Position numbers and translations under genes: made by a program. Below, piece by piece: positions 4,640 to 61,560 of a stretch of 64,000 bases of DNA. The notes beneath the pieces are model-generated. The model made no database searches. It saw only the letters and a list, made by a program, of their open reading frames with translations, and was not told where the DNA came from. Each line of letters starts with the position of its first letter. Position 1 is the first letter of the stretch. The stretch spans positions 78,084-142,083 of the forward strand of contig NW_024883053.1 of the NCBI RefSeq assembly GCF_019059575.1, in the 5' to 3' direction. The DNA comes from Amphibalanus amphitrite (taxonomy: Eukaryota > Arthropoda > Thecostraca > Balanomorpha > Balanidae).

Positions 4640-5632
4640 ATGAGGTTTCAATGTCTGTCATAGCTACACTAAGAAACCGATCACTTAAAACTTTCAGCAG
4701 TTGATAAGAGCTACAATAGCCGTTTTCACAACGGCCATCTGGTACACATTTGTTGCACATCTGGTGCAGATTAGGTGCAGATTTGGTCAAATCAGGTTCA
4801 GTGTGTCTCTTAGTAGCTATCAACTAAAGGGTTGCATTAATTGCTCATATGCCTGCTTTGTCATATTATCAAAGAGTAGTATCAATGACTACACTGAAAT
4901 AAATTCATAAAATAAAGATATTTGCTGGAAAAGAGATAAGGTACAGATTTGGTCAAATAAGGTGCACTCGCCGGATAGCCCGTCGTGAAAACGGCTAATA
5001 TGCACAAAATGTTAGCCTTGAAATTTCGATATCGGTGACCTAAGATCAGGTCAATTTTGCTACCTCTCCATTTCAACCCTCGCCGACACAGTTGATGATA
5101 TGCAGTTTGACCTTCCCTGGTCAGGTCATGACCTTGACCTGAGGTCAAATTATTGTCAAGACGAAAGGAACACGATGCTGGCAAAAGTAATGTCGTGACT
5201 CTGTCAAGTTAGACATTATTGAAGAAAGACGTTTTTCGTAAAAAGGCTATTTTTTGTTTTTTTTCCCACGGGAAGCTTAACTGTCGACCCGAGGTCAAAG
5301 CTGAGAACGTACTCCAGAAAGATGGTTAAAAGGGCTATCGAATTCGCTTTTCCGTGGCGCTGCAGCTCTATTGGTTCTAGAGCTATGCGACGTTGCTTCG
5401 AAAATTGTTGAAATGGGCGACATTTTGCCTTTGCTGACCTATGGTGACCTGACCTTTGACCTGACCTAAAAAATGACGCAAGTGTTTTCGTCCTTATTTT
5501 GACCGTTCTTTCGAATTGCGCTTACCGCGTGTCGCTACGTGGCCCAGGGACCGAGTTACACGGGGGTCTTTAAACACACACGCCCCAAGCAGGGCGCAGA
5601 AACACATGGGACCCCATCGGGGCGTGGGTTAA
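4640..5632 (+). mobile_element. Family A1 TTAA element, copy 2 (left end lost)
   Basis: It follows the A1 order from the TTTCAATGTCTGTCATAGCT phrase to a right end CGGGGCGTGGGTTAA (TTAA 5629-5632). A perfect DR1 lies at 5450-5462. A small inverted-repeat insertion occupies 4718-4996. The left terminus and its hairpin are missing. The right TTAA is shared with the next element, A2 copy 1. Confidence 0.7.
4718..4996. mobile_element. Small inverted-repeat element inside A1 copy 2
   Basis: It begins AGCCGTTTTCACAACGGCC and ends with an inverted counterpart, CCGTCGTGAAAACGGCT. A1 sequence continues on both sides, matching the AGAGCAATAGCATGTACAAA part of intact copies. The interior has repeated GGTGCAGATT(A/T)GG-like phrases. 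The target duplication was not resolved, though the insertion point is next to an AT step. Confidence 0.55.
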
Positions 5633-6281
5633 CCCGCGCCCCGCTGGGGGGGGGGCAGAATCTGCCCCCCCCCCCCTCCCGTTTTTCGCTAATAACTTCT
5701 AAACGCGTTACGCCAGCGACGTGAAACTTTTAGTACCTTATTATACATCAATTTGACACGATCCCTGAAAGTTTGAGCGAAATCCGTCGGAAATTTTTTT
5801 GAGAAATTGACGTTTTAGTGACGTCATGTTCGCCATTTTCGCCTCAAAAACGGCAAAATTTCAAACGCCGCTAAAATCTTCAATTTTAAAGGAACCAAGA
5901 CGTAACAAAAAAGGTCATACGTGATTCTACTGTGTCTATCAAATGTCTATCTCGGTTTTTTGAAAATTGTGGATTTTGGCTCAATTTTTTTTTCTTCGAA
6001 AAACTGACTTTTTTGGGAAAATAATTATAAAATCCAAAATTTTGAGGGTATCGAAAAAACGGAATATATGTCAGAGAAGTGGTCTATGTACACCTACATA
6101 CTAATTTTTAGAAGAATCGGTTCAAACATGTGGGAGTTATTCAAAATTTTATGACGTCACGACACACAAGAATTTTGAAAAAAAAAAGATTTTTTTGAAG
6201 TTCTAGACCTCGTACGGAAACAAAAATAGCACCATTCGATTTGCCGTGAATCGCTGCATCAGATAGACACCTTTTTAGGTC

Positions 6282-7189
6282 TTAACCCTCGCCGGCACAG
6301 GGGGGGGGTTGATGCAACCCCCCTAAGGTTTTTCGCGAATAACTCGCGTAAAAAGCGGCCGATCGCGACGAAACTTTCAGTACCCTCGCATTAATCAATT
6401 TTACACCTACCCTGAAAATTTCATGACCCTGACCCCAATGACCTTTGACCTGTGACCTCTTTTCTGTGACCATGTTTGGCCGAAATCGCGGTTCGGCGCA
6501 TGTCGGCTCGCATTACCCGCGCGTTTGCAAGCTTTTCGTGGTTTCATACGTTCAAACATGTGATTTGATGTTGCTCCCATGCATTAGGGTGGGTGTCAAG
6601 GTCACCTGAAGGTCAGGTCAGGTCATTGACCTTTGGTGACCTCGGGTGACCTCGGTTCACTTTTTCGAGTTTTACATGTTTCTAGACTAGTTTTTGGAGC
6701 TGAATTCGAATTTAGCAACCATTTGAACATTTACGACGTAGTTTTGGTGCCTTCGTAACATGTTACGAAGCTGTCCGAGGCGGTTGACACGTATTACGAA
6801 TACCCGTCACAACCCCTACCGGTTGACCTGACCTGACCTGACCCGACCTGGTCTAAATGCTTAAAGACATCATCTCTGATCAAAACTAACACGATATTCG
6901 TGATCAGCACCCCGGAAAACCACATAGCAGCCACACTTTACTACTTTCTAACAGGTCCCGATTCTCCCGGTTTTCGGGTCATTGACCTGACCTGGAAGGT
7001 CACCCGATGACCTAGGACCTTAAAATTGGGTATCATCGGCTTCGTCTCGTGACGGGCAACACGCTCGTTTTTTCCGCGAAGCTCTAGCTCGATCAGGGGC
7101 CAAACGCGAGGGGGGGGGTGGTTGTACCAACCCCCCCCCCCCCTTGTGCCGTCGAAGGACTCAAAATGGCCTGTGCCGGCGAGGGTTAA
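6282..7189. mobile_element. Family B TTAA element B2, nested in A2
   Basis: TTAA at 6282-6285 and 7186-7189; termini CCCTCGCCGGCACAGG and CCTGTGCCGGCGAGGG. Hairpins with G/C runs lie at both ends (stem centres TTGATGCAA on the left and TGGTTGTACCA on the right). The body has a perfect IR1 at 6620-6632 and dense TGACC pentamer runs. The empty site is visible in A2 copy 2 near 13870. Confidence 0.9.
6620..6632. promoter_or_regulatory. Perfect AGGTCA IR1 (EcR/USP-type)
   Basis: The sequence is AGGTCATTGACCT inside B2, preceded by a further AGGTC repeat. Confidence 0.5.
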
Positions 7190-7558
7190 AAACCAACTTC
7201 AAAATTTGACCTTACTTGACCTGACCTTGACCTGACCTCGACCCCAAGTTCATCCAGAGGTGGTCCATATCACTTATTGAGTGTGCCTATTGAATTCTAT
7301 GAGTAAAATGACCCATAAAACATGTGTCGCACATGCCCTTTTCTATATTTTGTTTTTAGTGACCTGACCTGACCTGACCTGACCTTGACCTTGACCTTTG
7401 AATAACATTTTTTGCAACGACTATTGTCTTGGTAGTCTAAGAACACGTTTTGGGCAATCAGTCTCAGTCCATTCTTCGGCAACTACGGTGCAAGGCCGAT
7501 ACTGTAGAAACTTGCATTTTGTACCCTTGACCTGACCTTGACCTGACCTCTGACCTAC

Positions 7559-8700
7559 TTAACCCGCGCCCGGCTGGGGGTCCTGGATTTCCACGCCCTG
7601 CTGGGGGGGGGGGTGTTTGAACACCCCCCTTCTAACTCGGCTCCTGGGCCACGTAGCGATACGCGGAAGGCGGCGTTCGAAAGAGCGTCAAAAATAATGA
7701 GGAAATTACTTCGGTCAATTTTTTGGTCAGGTCAAAGGTCAGGTCACCAGAGGTCATTGAAGGCAAAATTTCGCCGATTTCCGGGTCGAATGTCGAAAAT
7801 TTCCCAGAAGCCAACGCATAACTCGGGAACCAATAGAGCTACAGCGCCGCGGAAAAGCGCATTCGATAGCCCTTATAACGCCCTTTCTGAATAATTCTCT
7901 CAGATTTGACCTAACGTCAACGGTTTTGCCTGCAGGGGGCAAAAACTGCAAAAATAGCCGATTTTTTCGGAAACAGTTTTTTTTCTGCAATAACTTTTGA
8001 CCCAAGCCTTGTACGAGCTTACTTTTACCGGCATCGTGTTCCTCTCGTCAAGACGCATCAAATGAACTATAACTTGACCTTGAAAGGTCAACTTGAAAAT
8101 TTGACCTCAGGTCAAGGTCATGACCTGACCTGCAAGGGTCATGTTGCATATCAGTCGATCCGTATCGTCGAGCTGACCACATCTAAGGCGTTTTCATCCC
8201 TCTAGCATGCCTCTATCAAAAGTTATTTGCGAATTACTGTTAGATACCATTCGTGACCTAAGATGACCTCAGGGCATAAACAGGGGTCACGGACACCATT
8301 TTCATGTTCAGTGTGTCTAAAACACTTGTAATTCGGTGTTTGGGAGTGTTTATAATGTCTTTCGTCCAAAAGAGGCGCATTTCAATTTTCTCCCAATGGG
8401 GAGGTCGCAAAATTGACCTGACCTTAGGTCATCGATATAAAAATTCTGAGATATACATTTTGTACATGCTATTGCTCTTAGCAATCGCTGAAAGTTTCAA
8501 AGCGATCGGTCACTTGGTGTAGCTATGACAGACATTGAAACTTTTTATGAGGTGAGGTCACTTCAAGTGACCTGGTGACCTGACCTTGAATGACCTTGGT
8601 CTGAAATTTTCACAACATGTGTAGAATCGATGTATGATAAGGTGTACCAAAAACACAAAGAGGGTGTTCAAACACACACCCCCAGCAGGGCGCGGGTTAA
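7559..8700 (-). mobile_element. Family A1 TTAA element, copy 3, nested in A2
   Basis: A nearly full-length A1 in reverse: left TTAACCCGCGCCCGGCTGGG (TTAA 7559-7562), right AGCAGGGCGCGGGTTAA (TTAA 8697-8700). The hairpin GTGTTTGAACAC sits between G and C runs near 7605-7630. A perfect DR1 lies at 7729-7741. It lacks the GGCGGCGCGGAGCGCC hairpin near its A1 left end (about 8640-8670) that other copies have, so it carries a small internal deletion. Confidence 0.88.
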
Positions 8701-8977
8701 GCAAAAAAAAAATTGTGCTCTTTAGATCCGCCTTGTTGAGAGCTTTCGATTGCCGTTTTCCTCGTCTTTCTACGACCATCGGTTCGGAAGTTAGACAGGG
8801 GGGGGGCAGAATCTGCCCCCCCCCCCCCAGCAGGGCGCGTATGGCTGAATAACCCAGCGGGGTGCGGGTTAAACACCTCATCCCGCGCCTGACTGAGGGG
8901 TGGCCATTCATAGCCCCCTCTCGTTTTTCTACAATATCTTCTAGACCGCTAGACGCATCAACACAAGACTATTAGTA

Positions 8978-10559
8978 CCGTAAAGTGGGGCTATTTGAGA
9001 CAGTGGGGCTATTTGAGACAGTAAGGTAATGGTATAGTAAAATCGCTGTAAAATGAAAACCGTTTGATGTTATTTCGTCATTTTGCTTAAGCTGATGTGG
9101 AATTGAACAATGAATGCTCTGAATAACCTTTTTGAAAATTTCGAAAAGTTCTGAAAGAAATTTGCAATAAAATACGAAATACAGAAAAACGCACAATTTA
9201 AGTTGCTCGAAAAGGACTCCTACCTGCAGCTTAAAAAAGTTGAAGTTTTAACAGCTTCGCCACTGCATCTATCGCTACTACCTTTTTGCTTATAGGTTAA
9301 GCACATTTTTCATGAAAATATTATATATTGTTAACGGTACTGCCGATTGCGTAACCCATTGTCTCAGAATCCCGATGATGCCCACCTGGTTAAACCTCAA
9401 CGGATATGCCAAATAGCTGATGATAACGGTGATGCAATGCGCCCGAGAAGACTTACCGCCATCTACCTGAAGTGCATCGAACGTTCGACATAAGCAACAC
9501 CGGTGAATCGGTCGTGGTCATAAACGTGCAGTGGGTTCATGGTAGGTACTTTTAGCAGCAAGCAATATTTACATGTTCGTAGTGTAACATAATAACCCTT
9601 TAGCTGGTGACCAAACTAGTTATTCTGATGAATATGTGCTTAAAATGTGCTTCATCAGTCACTGACTCATTCGACAATCAACATATGTCTACCTTGGTGG
9701 ACCAAAAAACACCATCGAATGTTACTTAACACATGAACGTACTGTTAGGTGAGCCTATCCAAGTACTTGATGTGGTAGGGTAACCGGCCAATTGATACGG
9801 CATGCAGCGATCGAGGAAAATCGGCATAAAATCAAAACCGTTTAACATTTTTCTGTTATTTCTTCGCATGGAGATGTACAATGGAACAAACAATCATGCA
9901 GACCATTCACTCAAATGTTTTGGGAAACCTTTTGCCTTGTTTGATTCATTACAGTGTGCTTCATAAGGTAGCGAGACTGTCTCAAATAGCCCCACCGACT
10001 TTCGGTATATCTGTTTTCACGTCACCGGGGCTATATACAAAAACTTACTTTGAAAATTTTACTGTCGATGACTTTAAAATAGTCCTTGATGATCATCCTG
10101 TCAGTTTGAAAGCTATGGGTCACATCATATTATGATAGCCTTAGCATATAGTGATGCAATTTTATACCCTACCGAAATGAAGTGTCCTACGAAAAAGGAA
10201 AAGATTGAATATAAAGGTCATATAACAGTCTTTGAAAAAAACAATTTTTGCCAAGATGATCAAAATTCAATTTCCAAATGCAAGGCGTTTAAAAAATTAT
10301 CTCTAGCGTCACCGATTTTCTTTAATTTCCTTGCAACTAAAACTGTCTCAAATAGCCCCACCCTATGGGGCTATTTGAGACAGGCTTTAACATAAAAAAT
10401 AACCTCAGTCATTATTAGTAGCTGAACCAAAATACACCTATATGAAAGAGCTCACAGAGAACTACATTTTTGCAATTTACATGCTATAAGAAATATGAGC
10501 CGTCTTAAAGGGAGAGGCCAAAAACTGTAAAATCCGTTTCAAATAGCCCCACTTTACGG
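8978..10559. mobile_element. TA-flanked element T1 (CCGTAAAGTGGGGC ends)
   Basis: Terminal inverted repeats CCGTAAAGTGGGGC and GCCCCACTTTACGG are flanked by TA (8976-8977 and 10560-10561). The phrase GGGGCTATTTGAGACAG recurs immediately inside the left end and, in both orientations, near 9983-9995 and 10346-10383. TA duplication suggests Tc1/mariner-type mobilisation (family knowledge). No transposase frame is evident, so it is non-autonomous. The host is a remnant of another A-like element, continuing as CCTTCGGCTGCATCAATTTG. Confidence 0.85.
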
Positions 10560-10776
10560 TACCTTCGGCTGCATCAATTTGACACCTTACGTTCGAGCAA
10601 AAATTTCGTTATAACTACTATAGATCGGCCGAAAATGATATCAGAATGACGTTATGTTCGACCAATTTTGATGCAAAACATTGACAGACCTTTGTTCGGA
10701 ACCTTCATACAATGGGTTTTGTGGTTTCTACGTCATGTATACATACAGGCTAGATCAAAAAACATAAAATAGCAAG

Positions 10777-10834
10777 TTAACCCGCGCCCCTCTGGGTCGC
10801 GTATGGCTGAATAGCCCAGCGGAGCGCGGGTTAA
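10777..10834 (+). mobile_element. 58-bp minimal A2 element
   Basis: It consists of almost nothing but two A2 ends: TTAACCCGCGCCCCTCTGGG joined to a GCGTATGGCTGAATAGCCC segment and GCGCGGGTTAA, with TTAA at both borders. It looks like an extreme internal deletion that kept both termini. Confidence 0.75.
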
Positions 10835-11039
10835 AACCACGTAGCAAAGATAAAGGCGCATTAAAAATCATTCCATTGCTTGCTAGCGTGAAATATGAAG
10901 CCACGGCGGGCAAACTCTGTCCTTACACGAGGCGAAGTCAAACGCCCATTCTCAGTCGCACGAGTACCTACTTCTGGAAGACTCGCGTGATCTAAAGACC
11001 AGCTTATTACGCAAGATATCAGGGGCGTTAGCTGAGGTC
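10835..11039. other. Unassigned stretch
   Basis: No reading frame, repeat border or motif recognised. Confidence 0.3.
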
Positions 11040-13004: not shown

Positions 13005-13233
13005 CCATTTCTAGCGCCGCCATTTTGACTTTTTCGACCCCCGTGACGTCATTTTTGACCTGACCTGAAAATGACCTTAGTAAAAATTGTAGACCTTGTC
13101 CGTGCGTATCCGATGCCGTTTACCGCTTGTCGTTATCTTGCTTCAATCTCGAGATCTCAGGGGGGCGGTCATCCGCCCCCCCCCCCCCCGTCGGTGCGAA
13201 GTTGGCGCAGACCCCCGTCGGTGCGCGGGTTAA
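13005..13233. mobile_element. Right-end fragment of a CCGACGG-type TTAA element
   Basis: It carries the hairpin GGGGCGGTCATCCGCCCC (near 13157-13190) and ends CCCGTCGGTGCGCGGGTTAA, the inverse of the left end at 61433 (TTAACCCGCGCACCGACGGG). The left part is missing. Its terminal TTAA (13230-13233) is shared with A2 copy 2. Confidence 0.6.
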
Positions 13234-14274
13234 CCCGCGCCCCGCTGGGAGGGGGGCAGAATCTGCCCCCTCTCGTTTTTCGCCAAAAATTTCTAAATAC
13301 GTTACGCCAGCGACGTCAAACTTTCAGTACGTTATCATACATCAATTTGACACGTTCCCTGAAAATTTGAGCGAAATCCATCGGAATTTTTTTGAGAGAT
13401 TGACGTTTTAGTGACGTCATGTTCGCCATTTTCGCCTCAAAAACGGCAAAATTTCAAAGCCGCTAACATCTTCATTTTTAAAGGAATCAAGACGTAACAA
13501 AAAAGGTTATACGTGATTCTACTTCGTCTATCAAATGGCAATCTCAGTTTTTTTGAAAATTCTGGATTATGGCCCAATTTTTTTTCTCAAAAAACTGACT
13601 TTTTTGGGAAAATAATTATAAAATCCAGAATTTTGAGTGTATCGAAAAAACCGGGACATATGTCAGAGAAGTGGTCTATGTGCACCTACATACCAATTTT
13701 TAGAAGAATCGGTTCAAAAATGTGGGAGTTATTCAAAATTTTATGACGTAACGACACACAAAAATTTTGAAAAATGATTTTTTGGAAGTTCTAGACCTCG
13801 TACAGAACCAAAAATAGCACCATTCGACTCGCCGTGAAAACTTGTATCAGATAGATACCTTTTTAGGCATTAACAACCAACTTCAAAATTTGACCTCACT
13901 TGACCTGACCTTGACCTGACCTCGACCTGAAATTCATCCAGAGGTGGTCCATTTCATATCACTTATTGAGTGTGCCTATTGAATTCTATGAGTAAAATGA
14001 CCCATAAAACATGTGTCGCACATGCCCTTTTTCTATATTTTGTTTTTGGTGACCTGACCTGACCTGACCTAACCTTGATCTTGACCTTTGAATGACATTG
14101 TATGCAACGGATATTGTCTTGGTAGTCTAAGAACACATTTTGGGCAATCAGTCTCAGTCCATTCTTCGGCAACTACGGTGCAAGGCCGATACTGTAGAAA
14201 CTTGCATTTTGTACCCTTGACCTGACCTTGACCTGACCTCTGACCTACTTAAGCAAAAAAATTTGGGCTCTTAC

Positions 14275-15228
14275 TTAACCCTCGCCCGCACATGCCATTT
14301 TCCCATCCTAGAACGCACATGGGGGGGGGGGTTGCCACCCTTCCCCCCGCGCCATTTCGTTCCTGTTGGAGATAGAGCTTAGCGGTAAAGACCAAAAAGA
14401 TTCTTTGGGAAGAGACGAATCCAATGATACCCAGTTTTACCTTCTCAGGTCAGTCATTGACCTTCTAGGTCAGGTCAAACTAAAAAATGTTGCTGCTTTA
14501 GGTCACCGTTGGATATCAAGTGCGCTGCTTGTCATATACCGATGACGATGCCGTTTTCTGGCGACAAGCCAGCTAGAACCTCTTTGTCACACTACCCGAC
14601 CAGGTTTTTGCTGCTGAGGTCATCTCAGGTCAAGTTAGGTCAAGGTCAATAATATGTGTTTGTGTGTCTGTGTGTGTCTGTGTGTATACTGATGTGTGCA
14701 CCGATTGTTTATGTGTCCATATTACATGAAATCATGATCTGAGAAGCTTTTACCAAAAATTTAGTCAAAAAATTCAAAAAAAGTAAATTCAGTTTGCCTA
14801 AAACGCAATTATCTTAGATGACCTAGGTTGACCTTGACCCTGACCTTGACATCTGTATATCGTCGAACAACATGTTTCATGATAGGTGGGAGGTAAGATT
14901 GGCATAAAAGGCCGAAATCAAGGTGTTAAAAGCTGACAAGGCCCTATAGCCAACGCAAGATGTTGAGAATTGGCCATTTGGGTCATGACCTGACCTAAAA
15001 AACAAGGTCATATCTCCGAAACCAAAAACCACAGCAATTTGAAATTTTCAGTGGACATCAAGAAAAAATTGAGGAGCAGCTATACGAAAAATCAGCTTTC
15101 TAGCTCTAAAAATGTTGAGTGCAGAGCAGAAAGACTACCTGGGGGGGGTTGCCACCCCCCCCCCAGGTAGTCTTTGGAAGTTCTAAGACTACCTGGGGGT
15201 AGCCTTAGAACTTGCGGGCGAGGGTTAA
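14275..15228. mobile_element. Family B-like TTAA element B3, nested in A2
   Basis: TTAA at 14275-14278 and 15225-15228; termini CCCTCGCCCGCA and GCGGGCGAGGG. The hairpin-like G/C runs surround GTTGCCACCC near both ends (about 14321-14350 and 15140-15165). A (TGTG) rich stretch lies at 14656-14690. The final TTAA also starts element A7. Confidence 0.8.
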
Positions 15229-16163
15229 CCCGCGAGTTGGTGGGGGGGGGGCGTTAAACGCCCCCACTTTTTTCGCCGGGCCATAGCATAAAAACGGCGC
15301 GTAGCAGGCGCGCCAAATTTTGGGTACCTGTAGGGAATTGATTGAAGTTTATTGTGACAAAGTTTCAAAAAAATCGGTCGGAAAATTTTTGAGATATCGA
15401 GGTTTTAGTGACGTCATGATTTCTGAGTTTTCGACCAAAAACGGCATATGTTCAAAAAATCATATAAAATCACAGAATAGACATATAGACATGCCGTAAA
15501 CGCCATTAGACTGCCAATACCATGGAGAATCAAATGGCTATCTTCGATTATTGATTATCGTTCCGCATTTTCCAAAATCTTGAACTGAATCTTGGCAATT
15601 TCTCGTGACTACTTCGCGACCATGATACATGAATTTCTTAAATTGAACTTTTTTAGCCAAACACGTACACATATGATAAAATGAATGTCACCATCGTGTT
15701 CTACGCCCCAAATTACCCATAAAACATGTGTCACAGGCTGCGAATATCAGTTTTTATTTTCGGGGATATGTGCCTGCCCGGTTGAACTGACCTTGACCCT
15801 GACCTATGCTTGACTGACCCCTGCATGGAGCTGACACTCTTGTAGGCCTTATATGATTATTGTGCCTTATTGTGCACCGTTTTGACAGAGTTTATGACGA
15901 GAGGCGCCCATTGCGAAGTCCTGAAGTCCATGCTACTGAAAGCCCGATTTCAGGTGCTTGACCTGACCTTGACCTGACCTGTGACCTCAAAATTCAACTG
16001 AAGAAGTACTCATCTGAAGCATCTCGTCGCGTTCTTTCGTTTGCCGCCTCGTGCGTTTCGCTGCGCCTATTGGTTCTCGAGTTATCGGCTGGGGGCGTTT
16101 AACGCCCCCCCCCCCCCCCAGCAAACGGTGGGTGGCGAAATACCCCAGCAACTGCCGGGTTAA
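15225..16163. mobile_element. Family A TTAA element A7, abutting B3
   Basis: The left end TTAACCCGCGAGTTGG is followed by a hairpin GGGCGTTAAACGCCC. The right end has GGGGCGTTTAACGCCCC (about 16093-16110), then CAACTGCCGGGTTAA (TTAA 16160-16163). It is a distinct subfamily with no coding capacity. It has a TGACGTCATG motif near 15409 and several ATATCGAGG-like module phrases. Confidence 0.75.
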
Positions 16164-22358: not shown

Positions 22359-23402
22359 TTAACCCTCGCCCTGGCAGGGGGGGTCGATGCGACCCCCCCC
22401 CCTAAGGCTTTTCGAAGATAGCGTAAAAACGGCGGCGCGCAGCGCCGCCAAATTTGGCACAGCCTATGGGGCAACCTTTTTACATGTTACCTGAAAATTT
22501 CAGGTCCGGGTGACCTTGGGTCAGGTCACCAGGTCAGGAAAACCGGTACAAGGTCATGGTCAAATTTCAATTTTCTTTTTGCACCTGTCCAACTCACAGT
22601 TTTCGACTGATTTCCTTCAAACTTTCAGGATGTGTTAAGTTCACTGAGTCGTATAACATATAGTTCGGGTTTTTTGAGGTCACTGACCTGAGGTCAGTTA
22701 GAGGTCATTACGCCGTAATGTTAAGCCTATGGGAAAATACTAAAATCGGAAAATACTGGAGATATCCGCCTCGTTCTATCACTTTTGTGCTTTGAAACCA
22801 CAGTACTTAACAGCAGGTCACTTGGTGCTCATTTGTTTGGTGTACTTATCCATGGGTCAGGTCAAGTGAGGTCAACTGAGGTCAAATGACTTTTTTGCCA
22901 ATAACTTGGCACATAATGACGCTAGAGCTTAAAAAATGGTGTCATTGTGTTCCTTATGATCAGCCGAATCGAATGATATGCGATATGACGCAATTTGGTT
23001 AAGTTGAACTTAATTAGTTGATTAAAGTTTACTTAAAAATTAAGAAAAACTTTAAGTACACTTAAGCAAGCTAAAAAGTATATCATTCGACGCGCCTTGA
23101 CGTGCTGAGTTCACTGGTGCTTTTCTTTTTGCTCTATCTTAATTAGATCAGAAATTATAAGCGAAAAACTTTTGGCCTGTTTTTAGCGAAATTTTTACAT
23201 TTATACCCCCCAAAACCCCCCTAAATATTGATCTAGAGCAACCAAATTTGCACAGGGGCGAGAACTCCAGAGGGCCCACCCACCTACCAAATTTGGTGTT
23301 TCTAGGTGCCATAGGAGCCAATCGCGAGGGGGGGGGGGTCGCATCGACCCCCCCCCCTGCCAGGCCGTGTTATGAAAAATGCCCTGCCAGGGCGAGGGTT
23401 AA
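22359..23402. mobile_element. Family B TTAA element B4
   Basis: TTAA at 22359-22362 and 23399-23402; termini CCCTCGCCCTGGCAGGG and CCCTGCCAGGGCGAGGG. The left hairpin GGGTCGATGCGACCC and right hairpin GGGTCGCATCGACCC are reverse complements of each other. The left interior shares the AAAACGGCGGCGCGCAGCGC hairpin with B5 and A1. A perfect IR1 lies at 22677-22689. Non-coding. Confidence 0.9.
22677..22689. promoter_or_regulatory. Perfect AGGTCA IR1 (EcR/USP-type)
   Basis: AGGTCACTGACCT inside B4, immediately followed by GAGGTCAG, so three half-sites lie within 20 bp. Confidence 0.5.
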
Positions 23403-23452: not shown

Positions 23453-24763
<1,311 letters not shown>

Positions 24764-30985: not shown

Positions 30986-31951
30986 TTAACCCTCGCCCAT
31001 GTAGGGGGGGGGGTTGGTGCAACCCCCCCCCCCCCCCCCCCTGAGGCTTTTCGGAAATAGTGCAAAAACGGCGGCGCGCAGCGCCGCCAAATTTTGGGTA
31101 CCTTATGGGGCAAACCTTGCGCATCTTTTGATAAAAAAAAAATTTGACCGGGTCATGTCAGGTCACGGAGTTATGACGTCACAAAGGGAACAGCCTCCGG
31201 CCGGATTTTCACAAACTGAGTGCCAACGCCCGAGGTTTCCTGCCGATGGTACGGACATCGGTTGATGGATCGTGATGAAACTTCCCATGCATGTTGGGGC
31301 AAGTATTGGCTATCATATGGTATAAGAAACTTGACCGGGTCAGGTCAGGTCACGGAGCTATGACGTCACAAGAGGAACAGCGTCCGGTACTATTTTTGAA
31401 AAGCGCCCGAACCACTATTTTGCTAATTCTTGTCACCTCAATGGGAATATGCAGCAATATTAGCTTATATAGGGAGCAAATGGACCTCCCAAATCCAAAA
31501 ATACAATCAGATTTCAAAAATTTAAATTTTGATTTTTCGAATTTCTGCCGCCGACTGTGACCTTGCCGACTTCCGGCGCTCCCAACGCGCCATTTTTAGA
31601 GCTAGGGAAACGAAATACATACCAAACGATAGAGAATTAATCAAGGAACACGATAGTGAAGATTTCAAGTCGATATCTCCCACCGTTTTGCCGCAATCGC
31701 CGCCGAAAGTTGAAAAAAAATCTATTTTTCCGAAAATTTGACCTTTGACCGGTCAAAAGTAGGTCAAATGTTGACCTAGGACCAAAAAATATACCACCAA
31801 TCGCGAGATCTCGGCGAGAGCAATCCGTTGGTCTTTTCCGCTAAGCTCTACGACGCTCCGTTTTCAAACGTCAAGGGGGGGGGGGTCGCACCAACCCCCC
31901 CCCCCCTGCATGGGCGAAGGTGGCAGATCGCCGTTTACGGGCGAGGGTTGA
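30986..31951. mobile_element. Family B TTAA element B5
   Basis: Left TTAACCCTCGCCCATG (TTAA 30986-30989); right CGGGCGAGGGTTGA (31948-31951, one mutated TTAA base). Hairpins with stem centres TTGGTGCAA (left, about 31008-31037) and TCGCACCAA (right, about 31875-31905). The left interior shares the GGCGGCGCGCAGCGCCGCC hairpin with B4. Confidence 0.82.
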
Positions 31952-32402: not shown

Positions 32403-32497
<95 letters not shown>

Positions 32498-37537: not shown

Positions 37538-38728
37538 TTAACCCGCGCCCTGCTGGGGGGGTGTTTGAACACCCCCCCTTGTGGTTTTTCGCGAATATCT
37601 CAAAAACGGCGGCGCGGAGCGCCGCCGTTTTTGGTACACCTTATCATGCATCAATTCTACACATGTTGTGAAAATTTCAGACCAAGGTCATTCAAGGTCA
37701 GGTCACCAGGTCACTTGAAGTGACCTCACCTCATAAAAAGTTTCAATGTCTGTCATAGCTACACCGAGTGACCGATCGCTTTGAAACTTTCAGCGATTGC
37801 TAAGAGCAATAGCATGTACAAAATGTATATCTCAGAATTTTGATATCGATGACCTAAGGTCAGGTCAATTTTGCGACCTCCCCATTATAAGTCAATGGGA
37901 GAAAATTGAAATGCGTCTCTTTTGGACGAAAGACATTATAAACACTCCCAAACACTGAATTACAAGTGGTTTAGACACACTGAACATGAAAATGGTGTCC
38001 GTGACCCCTGTTTATGCCCTGAGGTCATCTTAGGTCACGAATGGTATCTAACAGTTTTTCGCAAATAACTTTTGATAGAGGCATGCTAGAGCGATGAAAA
38101 CACATTAGATGTGTTCAGCTCGACGATACGGATCGACTGATATGCAACATGACCCTTTCTGGTCAGGTCATGACCTTGACCTGAGGTCAAATTTTCAAGT
38201 TGACCTTTCAAGGTCAAGTTATAGTTCATTCGATGCGTCTTGACGAGAGGAACACGATGCCGGTAAAAGTAAGCTCGTACAAGGCTTGGGTCAAAAGTTA
38301 TTGCAGAAAAACTGTTTCCGAAAAAATCGGCTATTTTTGCAGTTTTTGCCCCCTGCAGGCAAAACCGTTGACGTTAGGTGAAATCTGAGAGAAGTACTCA
38401 GAAAGGGCGTTAATAGGGCTATCGAATGCGCTTTTCCGCGGCGCTCTAGCTCTATTGGTTCCTGAGTTATGCGTAGGCTTCTTGGAAATTTTCGACATTC
38501 GACCTGGAAATCGGCGAAATTTTGCCTTCAATGACCTCTGGTGACCTGACCTTTGACCTGACCAAAAAATTGACCGAAGTGATTTCGTCATTATTTTTGA
38601 CGCTCTTTCGAACGCCGCCTTCTGCGTATCGCTACGTGGCCCAGGAGCCGAGTTAGAAGGGGGGTGTTCAAACACCCCCCCCCCAGCAGGGCGTGGAAAT
38701 CCAGGACCCCCAGCCGGGCGCGGGTTAA
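37538..38728 (+). mobile_element. Family A1 TTAA element, copy 6 (complete reference copy)
   Basis: TTAA at 37538-37541 and 38725-38728; left CCCGCGCCCTGCTGGGG, right CAGCCGGGCGCGGG. Hairpins between G and C runs: GTGTTTGAACAC (left) and GTGTTCAAACAC (right). A GGCGGCGCGGAGCGCCGCC hairpin lies at about 37606-37626, an IR0 AGGTCATGACCT at 38165-38176 and a perfect DR1 at 38547-38559. The right arm of palindrome 1 shows the empty site (TTTGTATGAAATGAACGC), proving a single TTAA-like site before insertion. Non-coding, 1191 bp. Confidence 0.95.
38547..38559. promoter_or_regulatory. Perfect DR1 of AGGTCA half-sites
   Basis: TGACCTTTGACCT reads AGGTCAAAGGTCA on the other strand, the classic DR1 of RXR/USP, HNF4 and related receptors (established). 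The same site is intact in A1 copies at 1535, 5450, 7729, 18841, 48800 and 58758. Confidence 0.5.
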
Positions 38729-39577: not shown

Positions 39578-39732
<155 letters not shown>

Positions 39733-44042: not shown

Positions 44043-44656
<614 letters not shown>

Positions 44657-48627: not shown

Positions 48628-49826
48628 TTAACCCGCGCCCGGCTGGGGGTCCTGGATTTCCACGCCCTGCTGGGGGGGGGGGGTGTTTGAACACCCCCCC
48701 TTGTAACTCGGCTCCTGGGCCACGTAGCGATACGCGGAAGGCGGCGTTCGAAAGAGCGTCAAAAATAATGACGAAATCACTTCGGTCAATTTTTTGGTCA
48801 GGTCAAAGGTCAGGTCACCAGAGGTTATTGAAGGCAAAATTTCGCCGATTTCCAGGTCGAATGGCGAAAATTTCCAAGAAGCCAACGTATAACTCGGGAA
48901 CCAATAGAGCTACAGCGCCGCGGAAAAGCGCATTCGATAGCCCTATTAACGCCCTTTCTGAGTAATTCTCTCAGATTTGACCTAACATCAACGGTTTTGC
49001 CTGCAGGGGGCAAAAACTACAAAAATAGCCGATTTTTTTGGAAACAGTTTTTCTGCAATAACTTTTGACCCAAGCCCTGTACGAGCTTGCTTTTACCGGC
49101 ATCGTGTTCCTCTCGTCAAGACGCATCGAATGAACTATAACTTGACCTTGAAAGGTCAACTTGAAAATTTGACCTCAGGTCAAGGTCATGACCTGACCGG
49201 AAAGGGTCATGTTGCATATCAGTCGATCCGTATCGTCGAGCTGAACACATCTAAGGCGTTTTCATCGCTCTAGCATGCCTCTATCAAAAGTTATTTGCGA
49301 AAAACTGTTAGATACCATTCGTGACCTAAGATGACCTCAGGGCATAAACAAGGGTCACGGACACCATTTTCATGTTCAGTGTGTCTAAACCACTTGTAAT
49401 TCGGTGTTTGGGAGTGTTTATAATGTCTTTCATCCAAAAGAGGCGCATTTCAATTTTCTCCCATTGACTTATAATGGGGAGGTCGCAAAATTGACCTGAC
49501 CTTAGGTCATCGATATCAAAATTATGAGATAAACATTTTGTACATGCTATTGCTCTTAGCAATCGCTGAAAGTTTCAAAGCGATCGGTCACTCGGTGTAG
49601 CTATGACAGACATTGAAACTTTTTATGAGGTGAGGTCACTTCAAGTGACCTGGTGACCTGACCTTGAATGACCTTGGTCTGAAATTTTCACAACATGTGT
49701 AGAACTGATGTATGATAAGGTGTACCAAAAACGGCGGCGCTCCGCGCCGCCGTTTTTGAGATATTCGCGAAAAACCACAAGGGGGGGTGTTCAAACACCC
49801 CCCCCCCCCAGCAGGGCGCGGGTTAA
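48628..49826 (-). mobile_element. Family A1 TTAA element, copy 7 (complete)
   Basis: TTAA at 48628-48631 and 49823-49826; left CCCGCGCCCGGCTGGGGG, right CAGCAGGGCGCGGG. Hairpins GTGTTTGAACAC and GTGTTCAAACAC between G and C runs, the GGCGGCGCTCCGCGCCGCC hairpin near 49733-49753, and a perfect DR1 at 48800-48812. Collinear, in reverse, with 37538-38728. Confidence 0.95.
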
Positions 49827-52049: not shown

Positions 52050-52061
52050 AGTGTTTATATT

Positions 52062-52527: not shown

Positions 52528-52669
52528 GACCTTTTTTTAATCCGAATCGGCGTCCGTTCATTCAAATACGGCAGCGGGCACCTTATCTCGACAGGCACTC
52601 CAACAACTCGACACTGGAGCACGCATTTCGACACGTTTCACGGATTTAGACTAGCATCTGTTGATATTC

Positions 52670-55477: not shown

Positions 55478-55776
55478 TATTTGAAATTTGTACGATTTAA
55501 CTTGTTATACCGCCAACGAAACTGCATGACCATTGCCATTGTAAAATGAAATTTGCCCTTTTCCAATGCCCGATGTCAAAATCCTATGCCGTGTGCCGAA
55601 ATCCATTGGCCAGTGTCGAAACCACGCCCAGTGTCGAAATTAAATGCCCCATGTCACGCCTCTGCACTATGCCGAGTTTGGAGCGTGGTTTGTCGAAAGC
55701 GCACTCCGGCTGACGTTCCTAATGCAGATCTGCCGAAACTAACTGACCGGATGCCGATTCGGATTGAAAAAAGGTG

Positions 55777-56224
55777 TAACTGGTCCCTAACCGTGTACCA
55801 AATTTGAGCGCCATCGGTCCAGCCGTTCTCGAGATCCGGAAACGACCCCTGCACGTGCGCACGTGCAGCAGCACCCCAACTCTGGCACATGGATATGCAG
55901 TGCCTAGTGAGTGCCTACCTACATACCAACTTTCAGCGCAATCGGCCCAGTAGTTACCGAGATATTACAGCAATTACAAAACTGACACCTCTTCGTTTTG
56001 CACGTGGCACGTGCATAAGGGGTCACCCACATGCATCGGGACTAGTCCAATACTTGGTAAAAGGAATGAAGCTACCCTACAAAAAATACCGCGTGTAAAT
56101 CGGTCAAGTGGTTGCTGAGATATAAGCCTCGCAAAAGCGTCCGCACGGCCGGCCGGCCGCTCATGCTCAGAAATTTCCGTTAATCTAAGGAAAGACTCCG
56201 CTCGCTTCGCTCACTCCGTAACAA
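55777..56224 (-). mobile_element. Family E repeat, copy 7, second piece
   Basis: It continues the copy from 52527: TGGTCCCTAACCGTGTACC, then CTGCACGTGCGCACGTGCAG, the ATCTC modules in reverse, GGCCGGCCGGCC and CGCTCGCTTCGCTCACTCC. Confidence 0.85.
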
Positions 56225-56354
56225 CTCCTGAAAAAAATAGGTCCCAGGTCATCTCAGGTCACGAGCTATAGAGGTCAAACTGAGGTCATGTTCGGCGATT
56301 TTTCGTCGAAAAAGTTGTTCACGGAGAAAAATCGCAGAAAATCAGAGTTTCAAC
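56225..56354. other. A/B-like remnant flanking C2
   Basis: AGGTCATCTCAGGTCACGAG and GAGGTCAAACTGAGGTCATG phrases typical of A/B bodies. The host of C2. Confidence 0.4.
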
Positions 56355-57448
56355 TTAAAGGTAGTGTGCCAGCTTTCCTGGACCGTATGGAGTTAATGGT
56401 CCAGATAAGGAGAACCGGATTTTTAGAACTTATCCATGCATTCAAAACTCATGGAAACGTCTTAAATTCTTCAAATTTTGAGTACCCCAGTGCAAAATTC
56501 GCCCCGACGGGTTGTCGGTCGTACCCCAACCACATTTCACACCACTATGAAATAAATTAAAAAAAAATGCACACACTGAAATCGCTATTACCGATAGGCT
56601 CATCCAATCAAGTTTCGATAAACCCGTTCATCATCATCTCCTGCGGTTTCGAACACGCCTGTTAGGTGGTGCGGTAGACCGCGCCCAAAGCCAGGGCCCC
56701 GGTGACGTGAGGTAGCCGAGTCGGGGCAGCGTGCGCTGACCCAAGCCGGGGCCGCGCGTCCTCCCGGTGTCATGTGATAGCCCGGGGCTGCCCGGGGATG
56801 CGGTAGACCGCGCCCAAAGCCGCGGCCCCGGCTTGGGTCAGTGCACGCTGCCCCGACTCGGCTACCTCACGTTACCTTGGCCCTGGCTTTGGGCGCGGTC
56901 TACCGCAGGTGGCTTCTGCTCACTTGGTGCGGTGGTGGTGCGTCGGGCCGCGCGCTCTGACTTCGGCCAAGAAAAATGCGTCAGCTGATCATTGTCATTT
57001 CTGCCACTTTCATGTGGTGAGATGGGGTCATAACTTTAGAGAAGGCTGTTTCATATCAATTATTTTACATAAAGTAATATTTCAAACCATAAATTAATGT
57101 TCGACAGCCAAATTAAAGAAACAATACCAATACAGGCTTACAGTTTAAATTCGACATTGTGTTGTCTACGATTAGACAGCTGATAACTTATTCCCGTACT
57201 TCGTAACTCTATAATGACCTTTGCTTATTGTCACATGTGCGCCGCATTCGCGATTGTTGCCGACGCCTGTTTGCAGTTCAGCCCACTACAGTTGTTATAC
57301 ATATCGAAAAACCGATAAACTTTGATGCGAAAAAAGCACTATTTTAGGCCCATTTTTGATTTTTTTGCGATATTAGGTAAAAACAGAAGCTTCTTATCCT
57401 AGGAAAAATAAAATGGAAAATCATTGGAAGGTGGCACACTACCTTTAA
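56355..57448 (+). mobile_element. Family C TTAA element C2
   Basis: TTAA at 56355-56358 and 57445-57448; ends AGGTAGTGTGCCAGC and GGTGGCACACTACCT. Contains the GC-rich hairpin element at 56670-56907. Confidence 0.9.
56670..56907. mobile_element. 238-bp GC-rich hairpin element inside C2
   Basis: Inverted repeats of about 85 bp begin TGCGGTAGACCGCGCCCAAA and end GGGCGCGGTCTACCGCA. C1 supplies the empty site (TTAGGTGGCTTCTG), and GGTGG is present on both sides of the insertion. C3 carries a version with one end shortened (about 59855-60083). Almost the whole element can fold into one hairpin. Confidence 0.85.
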
Positions 57449-57751
57449 CGACTCAACAATCGAACTGTAGGTATTAAAAAGCATGGAAAATAAAATGGTT
57501 ATCTCGAAATTTCCAAAATATAAAAATCCATAGCTTTATGGGTTTTCTAACTTATAATTAGATTTATTGAGTTATTTTTCAAGTTTAGGGATCTTTAAAC
57601 GGAACATATGTCAGAGAACCCCTTACGGGCCCCACACATGCCAAAAATTAACAAAATATCTCTAAAACTGCCAGAGATGACTGGCAGTTTTCATTCCATT
57701 TGAATGACTGAAAAAGTAGGTAATTACAATTTTGATTGTAAAATGACGAGA
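57449..57751. other. A2-like remnant
   Basis: The ACATATGTCAGAGAA phrase near 57605 matches the A2 interior (near 6065). Nothing else recognised. Confidence 0.35.
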
Positions 57752-58940
57752 TTAACCCGCGCCCTGCTGGGGGGTGTTTGAACACCCCCCTTGTGGTTTT
57801 TCGCGAATATCTCAAAAACGGCGGCGCGGAGCGCCACCGTTTTTGGTACACCTTATCATACATCAATTCTACACATGTTGTCAAAATTTCAGACCAAGGT
57901 CGTTCAAGGTCAGGTCACCAGGTCACTTGAAGTGACCTCACCTCATAAAAAGTTTCAATGTCTGTCATAGCTACACCGAGTGACCGATCGCTTTGAAACT
58001 TTCAGCGATTGCTAAGAGCAATAGCATGTACAAAATGTTCATCTCAGAATTTTGATATCGATGACCTAAGGTCAGGTTAATTTTGCGACCTCCCCATTAT
58101 AAAACAATGGGAGAAAATTGAAATGCGCCTCTTTTGGACGAAAGACATTATAAACACTTCCAAACACTGCATTATAAGTGGTTTAGACACACTGAACATG
58201 AAAATGGTGTCCGTGACCCCTGTTTATGCCCTGAGGTCATCTTGGGTCACGAATGGTATCTAACAGTGTTTCGCAAATAACTTTTGATAGAGGCATGCTA
58301 GAGCGATGAAAACGCCATAGATGTGTTCAGCTCGACGATACGGATCGACTGATATGCAACATGACCCTTTCCGGTCAGGTCATGACCTTGACCTGAGGTC
58401 AAATTTTCAAGTTGACCTTTCAAGGTCAAATTATAGTTCATTCGATGCGTCTTGACGAGAGGAACACGATGCTGGTAAAAGTAAGCTCGTACAAGGCTTG
58501 GGTCAAAAGGTATTGCAGAAAAACTGTTTCCGAAAAAATCGGCTATTTTTGCAGTTTTTGCCCCCTGCAGGCAAAACGTTGACGTTAGGTCAACTCTGAG
58601 AGAACTACTCAGAAAGGGCGTTAATAGGGCTATCGAATGCGCTTTTCCGCGGCGCTGTAGCTCTATTGGTTCCCGAGTTATGCGTTGGCTTCTTGGAAAT
58701 TGTCGCCATTCGACCTGAAAATCGGCGAAATTTTGCCTTCAATGACCTCTGGTGACCTGACCTTTGACCTGACCAAAAAATTCACCGAAGTGATTTCGTC
58801 ATTATTTTTGACGCTCTTTCGAACGCCGCTTTCCGCGTATCGCTACGTGGCCCAGGAGCCGAGTTAGAAGGGGGGTGTTCAAGCACCCCCCCCCCCAGCA
58901 GGGCGTGGAAATCCAGGACCCCCAGCTGGGCGCGGGTTAA
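57752..58940 (+). mobile_element. Family A1 TTAA element, copy 8 (complete)
   Basis: TTAA at 57752-57755 and 58937-58940; left CCCGCGCCCTGCTGGGG, right CAGCTGGGCGCGGG. G/C-run hairpins at both ends, IR0 at 58377-58388, perfect DR1 at 58758-58770. Collinear with 37538-38728. Confidence 0.95.
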
Positions 58941-60521
58941 ATGTCTCGTGTCTAAGTCCATGTCTAACGTCTAAATACGTAAGGCCTTGTCGAAATTGAA
59001 TGCCCCTTGCCGAAATGATGCCTGATATCGATGTGGTGTGCCCGATGTCAAAGTAGAGCCCAAATGACGAAACAAAATGCCCCTATTCGAAGCAAATGAG
59101 AGATCGCTAATATTGAATACAGTTCGCCGAAATGGAATGAAAAGATGCCTAATTGAGATGCAAAAAGGTGTATACCGCCAACGAAACTGCATCACCATTG
59201 CCATTGTAAAATGAAATTCGCCTTTTTCCAATGCCCGATGTCATGCAGTCGTATGCCGCGGTGGCGAAATTCATTGGCCAGTGTCGAAACCTCGCTCAAT
59301 GTCGATATTAAAGGTAGTGTGCCACCTTTTAAAGATTTCCCATTTTATTTTTCCTAGGATAAGAAGCTTCTTTTTTTACTTAATATCGCAAAAAATCAAA
59401 AATGGGCCTGGAATAGTGCCTTTTTCGCCTAAAAGTTTATCGGTTTTTCGATATGTATAACAACTGTAGTGGGCTGACCTGCAAACAGGCGTCGGCAACA
59501 ATCGCGAATGCGGCGCACATGTGACAATAAGCAAAGGTCATTATAGAGTTACGACGTAAGTACGGGAATGAGTTATCAGCTGTCTAATCGTAGACAACAC
59601 AATGTCGAGCCTTAAACTGTAAGCCTGTATTGGTATTGTTTCTTTTATTTGGCTGTCGAACATTATTTATGGTTTGAAATATCATTTTATGTAAAATAAT
59701 TGATATGAAAAAGCCGTCTCTTAAGTTATGACCCCATTTCACCATACGCAAGTGGCAGAAATGACAATGATCAGCTGACGCATTTTTCTTGGCCGAAGTC
59801 AGAGCGCGCGGCCCGACGCACCACCACCGCACCATTAAGTATGAGCAGAAGCCGCGCCCAAAGCCAGGGCCCCGGTAACGTGAGGTAGCCGAGTCGGGGC
59901 AGCGTGCGCTGACCCAAGCCGGGGCCGCAGCTTTGGGCGCGGTCTACCGTATCCCCGCGGGCAGCCCCGGGCTATCACATGACACCGGGAGGACGCGCGG
60001 CCCCGGCTTGGGTCAGCGCACGCTGCCCCGACTCGGCTACCTCACGTTACCGGGGCCCTGGCTTTGGGCGCGGTCTACCGCACCATCTAACAGGCGTGTT
60101 CGAAACCACAGGAGATGATGATGAACGGGTTTATCGAAACTTGATTGGATGAGCATATCGGTAATAGCGATTTCAGTGTGTGCGTTTATTGTTCATAGTG
60201 GTGTGAAATGTGGTTGGGGTACGACCGACAACCCGTCGGAGCGAATTTCGCACTGGGGTACTCAAAATTTGAAGACTTTAAGACGTTTCCATGAATTTTG
60301 AAGGTATGGATAAGTTCTAAAAATCCGGTTCTCCTTATCTGGGCCATTAACTCCATACGGTCCAGGAAAGCTGGCACACTGCCTTTAAATGCCCCATGTC
60401 ACGCTGCTGCACTATGCCGAGTTTGAGGTGTGGGTTGTCAAAAACGCACTCCAGCTGACGTTCCTAATGCAGATCTGCCGAAACTAACTGACCAGATGCC
60501 GATTCGGATCCAAAAAAGGTG
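58941..60521. mobile_element. Family D sequence, copy 2, carrying C3
   Basis: 59170-59300 and 60389-60521 match 55505-55776 of D1, ending GATTCGGATC, AAAAAAGGTG. 58941-59171 is a further D-like piece whose end, CAAAAAGGTG, abuts TA (59172-59173). D1 lacks that piece at the same place (GTTATACCGCC). Bodies have GCCGAAAT/GTCGAAA phrases about every 20 bp. Confidence 0.6.
59308..60388 (-). mobile_element. Family C TTAA element C3
   Basis: TTAA at 59308-59311 and 60385-60388. Reverse orientation of C1/C2. Its host D sequence is seen empty in D1 (GTCGAAATTAAATGCC near 55633). It carries the GC-rich hairpin at 59855-60083 with its outer end shortened. Confidence 0.9.
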
Positions 60522-60576
60522 AATGTACATGCTGTATGTATAGTGTATCTGTTTCGATTTTGGCTTCCCTACTTAC

Positions 60577-60767
60577 CTAGCTGATTGCGGAGTGACCAAA
60601 GGTGTGTGCCCAGTTCCCGTTCCATCACAGGTTGAAAAACGTATCTGGGCAGCACAGAATCCATTGCCAAAAAAGTTGTGCCAGCCAGAACTGCCACCAG
60701 TAGCAAGTGCCAAGCAGTCATATGCCTGACAGGGTGAGCACTTGCAGAAAAGATCACCGTTAGCCAT
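60577..60767 (-). CDS. Candidate leader / signal-anchor exon
   Basis: On the minus strand a clean acceptor (TTCTCTCCCATTCAG, 60768) and donor (CAGCTAG then GTAAGTAGG, 60576) bracket an open exon. From the ATG at 60721-60719 it encodes MTAWHLLLVAVLAGTTFLAM, a hydrophobic signal peptide or type II anchor, then RYVFQPVMEREL and SLRNQL, ending in phase 1. That phase fits VWC exon 1 and also the GT31 exon directly. GT31 enzymes are type II membrane proteins, so this could be their N-terminus. The acceptor may serve a non-coding upstream exon. The frame 60573-60767 is the less likely alternative. Confidence 0.5.
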
Positions 60768-60893
60768 CTGAATGGGAGAGAAGGCATGTATTGTGTCAGA
60801 CAGGTGGTTGCCATGACATAAGTAACAGGAGAAAATAAAATGTCACCTTGAAGCGCAATTGTGACAGAAAACAAAAAGAGACAAAAATTATTG

Positions 60894-61436
60894 TTAACCC
60901 GCGCGGGGCTGGGGTCTCCAGCCGAACGCGCGGGGCTGGGGGTGGGTAAATTTTACCCCCCCCCCTGTTATCTCCCGAACTAATGGTCCGATTTGGAAAA
61001 TTCAAACGCCAATCGAAAGATCTCATCACGAACAACTAAAAACATGTACTTAATTTAAATTTTGAGCCTTGAGGTCAAGGTCAAGGTCAGGTCAAGGGTA
61101 CAAATTGCAAGTTTCTACAGTATCGGCCTTGCACCGTAGTTGCCGAAGAATGGACTGAGACTGATTGCCCAAAACGTGTTCTTAGGCTACCAAGACAATA
61201 TTCGCTGCATACAATATCATTCAGAGGTCAAGGTCAAGGTCAGGTCAGGTCAGGTCAGGTCACGAAAAACAAAATATAGAAAAGGTCATGTGCGACACAT
61301 GTTTTATGGGTCATTTTATTCATAGAATTCAATAGGCACACTCAATAGGTGATATGGACCACATCTGGATGAATTTCAGGTCGAGGTCAGGTCAAGGTCA
61401 GGTCAAGTGAGGTCAAATTTTGAAGTTGGTTGTTAA
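60894..61436 (-). mobile_element. Family A2-like TTAA element fragment (reverse)
   Basis: Left TTAACCCGCGCGGGGCTGG with a GGGTAAATTTTACCC hairpin (about 60944-60960). The interior reverses the A2 segment 13870-14250: AGGTCAAGGTCAGG runs, TTGCCGAAGAATGGACTGAG, ATGTTTTATGGGTCATTTTA. It is cut at the A2 internal TTAA (61433-61436), where another element begins. Confidence 0.7.
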
Positions 61437-61560
61437 CCCGCGCACCGACGGGGGGCGGATATCCGCCCCCCCTGAGGTTTTTCGCGAATAGCGGGAAAAC
61501 CGCGGCGCGTAGTGTGACGGAAGCCACATTTTTTCGAATCACAGCTTACAGGAATTGACA
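61433..61560. mobile_element. Left end of a CCGACGG-type TTAA element
   Basis: TTAACCCGCGCACCGACGGG, then hairpin GGGCGGATATCCGCCC (about 61454-61469) and the GTTTTTCGCGAATA module. The right end was not found; its counterpart end is at 13005-13233. Confidence 0.6.

What the first reader, a model, noticed from the sequence alone, without database searches (positions are those of the whole stretch)
5629..61470. Subfamily-specific, self-complementary hairpins between G- and C-runs at the ends of TTAA elements
Nearly every A and B element has, a few bases inside each terminus, a G-run, a short palindromic stem and a C-run. The stem differs between subfamilies yet always pairs: GTGTTTGAACAC (A1), CAGAATCTG (A2), CGTTTAACG (A7), CGGATATCCG (CCGACGG type), TAAATTTTA (60944), TCGATGCGA (B4), TTGGTGCAA (B5). 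In A1, A7 and B4 the second end carries the reverse complement of the first. In A11 the two halves of the stem are split between the two ends. Compensatory change like this suggests that the structure, not the sequence, is kept. It could act as a transposase specificity tag or an excision intermediate, or it could block read-through. The conservation is seen; the role is inferred.
Basis: partly seen in the sequence, partly recalled or inferred. Interest (0 to 1): 0.8.

Follow-up and report, generated by a model that had tools for sequence, protein, structure and literature searches.

The report
piggyBac ends with subfamily-specific palindromes
The odd G-run/palindrome/C-run motifs sit where the known cut-and-paste transposon piggyBac is gripped by a pair of identical protein domains, so they are best read as protein docking sites that differ between subfamilies rather than as working hairpins.

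Summary
In detail: thousands of TTAA elements in this 807.55-Mb genome carry G-run, short palindrome and C-run near each end. The palindrome differs between subfamilies yet stays largely self-complementary: 59 of 74 stem pairs over 22 cores, against 24.2 when halves are re-dealt. The layout is that of T. ni piggyBac: left palindrome centred at bp 23.5-32.5 (piggyBac 25); right end with the tip word repeated at 27 bp in 25 of 37 ends and 26 bp in 5 (PMC7351741 passages). piggyBac-type transposase genes lie between such ends in four families and match piggyBac better than piggyBat. In piggyBac two identical cysteine-rich domains (CRDs) bind this palindrome, so symmetry most likely reflects a two-fold protein, not a hairpin. 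Among A1-type sites one stem pair drifts independently (52 and 54 single changes, 1 double, 10,249 intact); another has 15 unexplained doubles. CRD binding is inferred, not shown.

The parts
1647..1676 (-). A1 right-end module (core TGTTTGAACA read inward); end at TTAA 1725
5629..5676 (+). A2 left end: TTAA, tip word, G-run, core CAGAATCTG, C-run
8798..8872 (-). A2 right end: outer tip, inner tip word at 27-bp offset, core CAGATTCTG; B1 and A1 lie between 5629 and 8872
6282..6323 (+). B1 left end, tip CCGGCACAGG, core TTGATGCAA
7110..7189 (-). B1 right end, core TTGGTACAA, tip word repeated at 27 bp; same tip as the transposase-bearing element at C778
7559..7629 (+). A1 right end, tip repeated at 27 bp, core TGTTTGAACA
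8664..8700 (-). A1 left end of the same copy, G/C runs interrupted
13160..13233 (-). CCGACGG-type right end, core CGGATGACCG, tip repeated at 27 bp
13230..13270 (+). A2 left end sharing its TTAA with the neighbour
15225..15265 (+). A7 left end, core CGTTAAACG
16091..16163 (-). A7 right end, core CGTTAAACG read inward
22359..22402 (+). B4 left end, core TCGATGCGA
23328..23402 (-). B4 right end, core TCGATGCGA, tip repeated at 27 bp
30986..31041 (+). B5 left end, core TTGGTGCAA
31875..31951 (-). B5 right end, core TTGGTGCGA (one stem pair broken), TTAA decayed
37538..37578 (+). A1 left end, palindrome centre bp 25.5
38659..38728 (-). A1 right end, palindrome centre bp 55.5, tip repeated at 27 bp
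48628..48700 (+). A1 right end
49781..49826 (-). A1 left end
57752..57790 (+). A1 left end
58870..58940 (-). A1 right end, core TGCTTGAACA (uncompensated stem change)
60894..60965 (+). right end, tip CGGGGCTGG repeated at 27 bp, core TAAATTTTA
61433..61472 (+). CCGACGG-type left end, core CGGATATCCG, centre bp 24.5

Best explanation
The elements are non-autonomous relatives (MITEs) of T. ni-type piggyBac transposons. Each end has two docking sites. The tip word next to TTAA (for example GCCCTGCTGG) would be gripped by the transposase core. The G-run/palindrome/C-run behind it would be gripped by the two cysteine-rich C-terminal domains (CRDs) of the transposase dimer, one per half. Two identical CRDs on one site require two complementary half-sites, so the half-site can change between subfamilies only symmetrically. 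The left end has the palindrome directly behind the tip; the right end has the tip word twice, 27 bp apart, with the palindrome behind the second, which would seat an inner dimer. Shown here: the anatomy, the 27-bp offset, the symmetry, and transposase genes between such ends. Inferred from piggyBac structures: which domain touches which part. Inferred only: that the G/C tracts are the outer parts of the CRD half-sites and that different cores prevent cross-use between subfamilies.
For: Layout: the 67 module-bearing ends in the held sequence split into 30 left (G-run from bp 13-20) and 37 right (G-run from bp 40-61), none between; in the right ends the tip word repeats at 27 bp in 25 of 37 and at 26 bp in 5 of 37; 7/10 or better at any offset in 32 of 37 versus 18.8% of shuffles (several ends are copies of one subfamily, so they are not independent). 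Left palindrome centre bp 23.5-32.5, 23 of 76 within 24-26. piggyBac: CRD dimer on bp 17-33, axis at bp 25, RE bp 34-63 almost identical to LE bp 7-35 (PMC7351741 passages). Partners: transposase-bearing stretches at C33 447032-451754 and C702 33509-39481 have a left and a right module end; C778 130624-~137200 likewise with a decayed left TTAA; C527 289270-294185 has right-type ends on both sides. C778 shares tip CCGGCACAGG and left core TTGATGCAA with window element B1. The four proteins match 6x67 (piggyBac) better than 9c0f (piggyBat): E 2e-78, 1e-56, 2e-66, 1e-74 versus 3e-30, 5e-21, 4e-18, 1e-26; for C527, C33 and C778 the match runs into the CRD, for C702 it stops before it. Two families with CCCATTAGTGCC ends and no module in the stretch shown match piggyBat better. 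Symmetry: 59 of 74 pairs over 22 cores. Centre 82% A+T (54 of 66) versus 44% (53 of 120) in the outer stem of 20 chosen cores, as the A-tract at the piggyBac axis. In 14 hand-picked elements left and right stems agree at 81 of 84 positions, centres at 35 of 45 (pairs with unequal or decayed cores left out).
Against: No binding was measured. The left palindrome is not sharply at bp 25: 25.0 is the commonest single value (8 of 76) but the median is 27.75, because G-run length varies between copies; I assume slippage after insertion or assembly error. As far as I recall, T. ni piggyBac ends have no such G/C tracts. With four transposase families the CRD does not track the core: the two sharing core CCATTTTGG have CRDs 43% identical, other pairs 30-54%. 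8 of 22 cores are not fully complementary. Some elements have unlike cores at their two ends (nested element at C702 33975-34969: CCTCAGGAG and CGATTCGG). No transposase with the A1 core TGTTTGAACA was seen among those fetched. No left-type end of the C527 family was found. 15 double changes at A1 pair 3-8 are unexplained.
Confidence: 0.78

Rival explanations
1. The stem acts as a DNA hairpin or cruciform (or RNA hairpin), for example as an excision intermediate, replication block or read-through block, and pairing itself is what is selected.
For: 5 of 5 modules tested fold well as single strands, dG -10.4 to -18.2 kcal/mol, z -3.06 to -4.13; pairing is largely kept across subfamilies; 15 double changes at A1 pair 3-8.
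Against: Position and left/right asymmetry are those of a known protein site. At A1 pair 2-9 there are 52 and 54 single changes and 1 double, 0.27 expected if independent, 10,249 intact. The pBat-like families whose ends were read in this genome show no such stem.
Confidence: 0.11
2. The symmetry is mutational: intrastrand template switching (quasipalindrome correction) or conversion turns imperfect stems into perfect ones, with no function.
For: G/C tracts could seed such hairpins; the 15 doubles at pair 3-8 and the single, compensatory double at pair 2-9 would fit.
Against: Uncompensated single changes outnumber doubles at pair 2-9 (52 and 54 against 1) and, left side only, at pair 3-8 (53 against 15). 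Left and right ends of 14 chosen elements keep the same stem (81 of 84 positions), which local correction would not ensure.
Confidence: 0.06
3. A host protein, not the transposase, binds the G/C-flanked palindrome.
For: Nothing here shows the binder.
Against: Cores change with the tip word and the same kind of end flanks piggyBac-type transposase genes.
Confidence: 0.04

Closest known systems
Trichoplusia ni piggyBac (PDB 6x67/6x68; PMC7351741, passages seen)
   Same: TTAA flanks, palindrome behind the left tip, right end with the tip motif repeated at 27 bp and the palindrome behind it; the four transposases match it best, with the same order of CRD cysteines and histidine where aligned.
   Different: Palindromes are embedded in G and C tracts and exist in roughly twenty different cores in one genome; different tip words; the left palindrome centre varies (median 27.75).
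Myotis piggyBat (PMC11707139, passages and one section; PMC13405395, passages)
   Same: Tip motif plus palindrome bound by a CRD dimer on the left end.
   Different: No palindrome on its right end and a different CRD fold; the two pBat-like families compared in this genome show no module.
Daphnia Pokey and mPok MITEs (PMC3849761, passages)
   Same: piggyBac family with two end types, each shared by full-length elements and MITEs; MITE titration is suggested there as a driver of divergence.
   Different: Two end types; the word stem 'palindrom' does not occur in that paper's main text.
Coral CMITEs (PMC2872659, passages)
   Same: TTAA MITEs linked to piggyBac.
   Different: No G/C-flanked palindrome in the passages seen; 'hairpin' does not occur.

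Membership tests
piggyBac superfamily, T. ni (pB) type | TTAA flanks and CC-start tips | tested here: met
piggyBac superfamily, T. ni (pB) type | DDE transposase PF13843 with pB-like sequence | tested here: met
   PF13843 E 2.4e-69 for P0001; P0001-P0004 best PDB match 6x67
piggyBac superfamily, T. ni (pB) type | Catalytic aspartates | tested here: met
   D327, D408, D508/D511 of P0001 invariant in 6 of 6 sequences, aligned to pB; residue roles recalled
piggyBac superfamily, T. ni (pB) type | C-terminal cross-brace CRD (order C2-C2-CH-C2) | tested here: met
   aligned to the pB CRD for P0001 and P0002; P0004 match reaches into it; P0003 only by eye; zinc-ligand roles recalled
piggyBac superfamily, T. 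ni (pB) type | Left-end palindrome centred at bp 25 | tested here: inconclusive
   range 23.5-32.5, median 27.75, 8 of 76 at 25.0, 23 of 76 within 24-26
piggyBac superfamily, T. ni (pB) type | Right end repeats the tip motif at 27 bp before the palindrome | tested here: met
   25 of 37 at 27 bp, 5 of 37 at 26 bp
piggyBac superfamily, T. ni (pB) type | CRD dimer binds the palindrome | not testable with these tools
   inferred from PMC7351741
piggyBac superfamily, piggyBat type | Closer to piggyBat than to piggyBac; no right-end palindrome | tested here: not met

The most novel reading that the evidence does not exclude
One genome holds a natural specificity series: some twenty symmetric CRD half-site words combined modularly with different tip words (core TGTTTGAACA with three tips; CCATTTTGG with three), produced by an arms race in which piggyBac transposases escape titration by their own MITEs by switching CRD specificity, both half-sites and both ends changing together.
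Probability: 0.3. Interest if true: 0.75.

Novelty: new variant of a known kind. Interest (0 to 1): 0.52.

Why it matters
If the cores are CRD sites, this genome offers roughly twenty evolved palindromes and at least four transposase families with such ends, enough to ask how the CRD reads DNA, how transposases and their MITEs diverge, and to supply piggyBac ends that may not cross-react. It also shows that covarying palindromes at transposon ends need not mean a hairpin.

Tried and rejected
Rejected: chance; hairpin-first reading as main explanation (see rivals); piggyBat membership; a CRD-to-core code from four families (no signal). The best-scoring transposase families were examined first and turned out to have other ends (CCCATTA...); for several families no end was recognised. 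The within-subfamily test was completed for one stem pair only; for pair 3-8 the right-only count and the letters of the 15 doubles were not obtained. The unpaired-centre control (GGGGTGTTTHAACACCCC) did not complete. That no like motif is in print rests on searches of an open-licence library only, read as listings with passages of a few papers. On re-checking I lowered the best explanation from 0.80 to 0.78 and the hairpin rival rose from 0.10 to 0.11, because the left palindrome centre is less sharp than I first wrote.
Full report
What is there. The window lies in an 807.55-Mb genome of 2,644 contigs, organism not named. Many TTAA elements have, near each end, a G-run, a short self-complementary core and a C-run. 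In 124 kb of the same contig, 62 TTAACCC ends were scanned: 24 have a palindrome score of 10 or more within bp 14-75, against 18 of 885 TTAA sites not followed by CCC. Genome-wide the left-end pattern has 17,664 forward and 55,029 reverse matches and the right-end pattern 13,629 and 35,462, with none for the reversed controls; reverse counts are inflated because several C-run ends of one place are counted. From 82 places taken from the listed rows (contig C1), 28 cores of 7-12 bases were compared (six shorter ones left out): 75 of 96 stem pairs are complementary; re-dealing right halves gives 29.2 +/- 4.6, maximum 51 in 20,000. Some of the 28 are variants of one subfamily; with one core per tip word, 59 of 74 pairs over 22 cores are complementary against 24.2 +/- 4.1, maximum 42 in 20,000, and 14 of 22 cores are fully complementary.

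The anatomy. Ends with a module in the window and the loci held at that time (67; ends without one were not counted) fall into two classes with nothing between. Thirty have the G-run at bp 13-20 after TTAA; 37 have it at bp 40-61. In the second class the tip word just before the G-run is a second copy of the outer tip word, 27 bp further in (25 of 37; 26 bp in 5; 32 bp in 2; five do not reach 7/10). Shuffled outer segments reach 7/10 at any offset in 18.8%. Several ends are copies of one subfamily, so these are not 37 independent events. An element such as A1 (37538-38728) has one end of each class. The left palindrome centre ranges from bp 23.5 to 32.5, median 27.75; 25.0 is the commonest single value (8 of 76) and 23 of 76 lie within 24-26; the spread follows G-run length. 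In 20 chosen cores the centre is 82% A+T against 44% in the outer stem; in 14 hand-picked elements the two ends agree at 81 of 84 stem positions but 35 of 45 centre positions. Pairs with unequal or decayed cores were left out of that count, for example the nested element at C702 33975-34969 with cores CCTCAGGAG and CGATTCGG.

What it matches. In T. ni piggyBac the transposase core domains bind the first 16 bp, and the two CRDs form a separate dimer on a palindrome-like 19-bp repeat at bp 17-33 of one left end, with its axis at bp 25 and an A-tract there; the right end has a 17-bp insertion and a duplication so that bp 34-63 are almost identical to left bp 7-35, taken as the seat of a second, inner dimer (PMC7351741, passages; related passages in PMC11707139, and PMC13405395). 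The 27-bp offset and the left/right asymmetry coincide with what is found here; the axis position agrees within a few bases. The two-fold symmetry of the CRD dimer gives a simple reason why half-sites change together.

The partners. PF13843 finds at least 116 piggyBac transposase matches in the genome. The best-scoring families, where ends could be seen, have ends such as TTAACCCATTAGTGCC and no module in the stretch shown. The two of these that were compared match piggyBat better than piggyBac. Four other families lie between module ends: C33 447032-451754 (666-aa frame; three copies at 100% protein identity), C702 33509-39481 (683-aa frame), C778 130624 to about 137200 (frame with one stop; left TTAA decayed) and C527 289270-294185 (674-aa frame; right-type ends on both sides). 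Their proteins match T. ni piggyBac best; the match runs into the CRD for C527, C33 and C778 and stops before it for C702. C778 shares tip word and left core with window element B1. C33 and C702 share core CCATTTTGG but have different tips, and core TGTTTGAACA occurs with three tips, so tip and core behave as separate modules, as expected if two protein domains read them. With four families no CRD-core relation could be seen. I saw no transposase with the A1 core.

Hairpin or protein site. Single strands of 5 of 5 modules fold stably, so a hairpin is possible. For core TGTTTGAACA between G4 and C4 there are 10,249 intact sites in the genome (not restricted to TTAA ends). At stem pair 2-9: 52 left-only, 54 right-only, 1 double (a compensatory one). 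Independence predicts 0.27 doubles; one is not an excess worth claiming. At pair 3-8: 53 left-only, 15 double, right-only not measured; the letters were not shown. Fifteen would be a strong excess if right-only is similar to left-only. It could be a small subfamily in which both half-sites changed, which the CRD model allows, or a sign of pairing constraint or local correction. This is the main result that my reading does not settle. The control on an unpaired centre base did not complete.

Confidence. Shown: anatomy, symmetry, offset, association with pB-type transposase genes. Inferred: CRD binding, the G/C tracts as outer half-sites, and cores as barriers between subfamilies. The Daphnia Pokey paper proposes that MITE titration drives divergence of transposase and ends (passage); the present genome may be a large case of that, which is speculation.

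Noticed in passing
window 5629-8872: Nested insertions: ends of an A2 element enclose B1 (6282-7189) and A1 (7559-8700).
   Followed up: partly
window 5629/5632, 13230/13233, 15225/15228; L040 1415/1418: Two elements abut at a single shared TTAA, as if one inserted into the other's target duplication.
   Followed up: no
window 10777-10834: Two tips face each other within 58 bp (both TTAA included) with no module: tips CCCCTCTGG and CTCCGCTGG.
   Followed up: no
G000:C527:289270-294185 (L040, L033): Transposase-bearing stretch with right-type ends on both sides; no left-type end of this family was seen there or in the upstream stretches fetched for C1173 and C42.
   Followed up: partly
G000:C103:1031996 and kin; G000:C1643:25411 and kin: piggyBac families with CCCATTAGTGCC ends and several copies with equal scores and open frames, suggesting recent activity.
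   Followed up: no
G000:C260:222803-222847: Two A1-type cores start 27 bp apart on the same strand, one with a right-only change, one the compensatory double.
   Followed up: no
places listed: 15 double changes at A1 stem pair 3-8, letters not shown; possible compensated subfamily.
   Followed up: partly
window 23456-23607, 63647-63842, 32407-32495, 39582-39729, 44282-44398: Long AG, TC and AT dinucleotide arrays.
   Followed up: no
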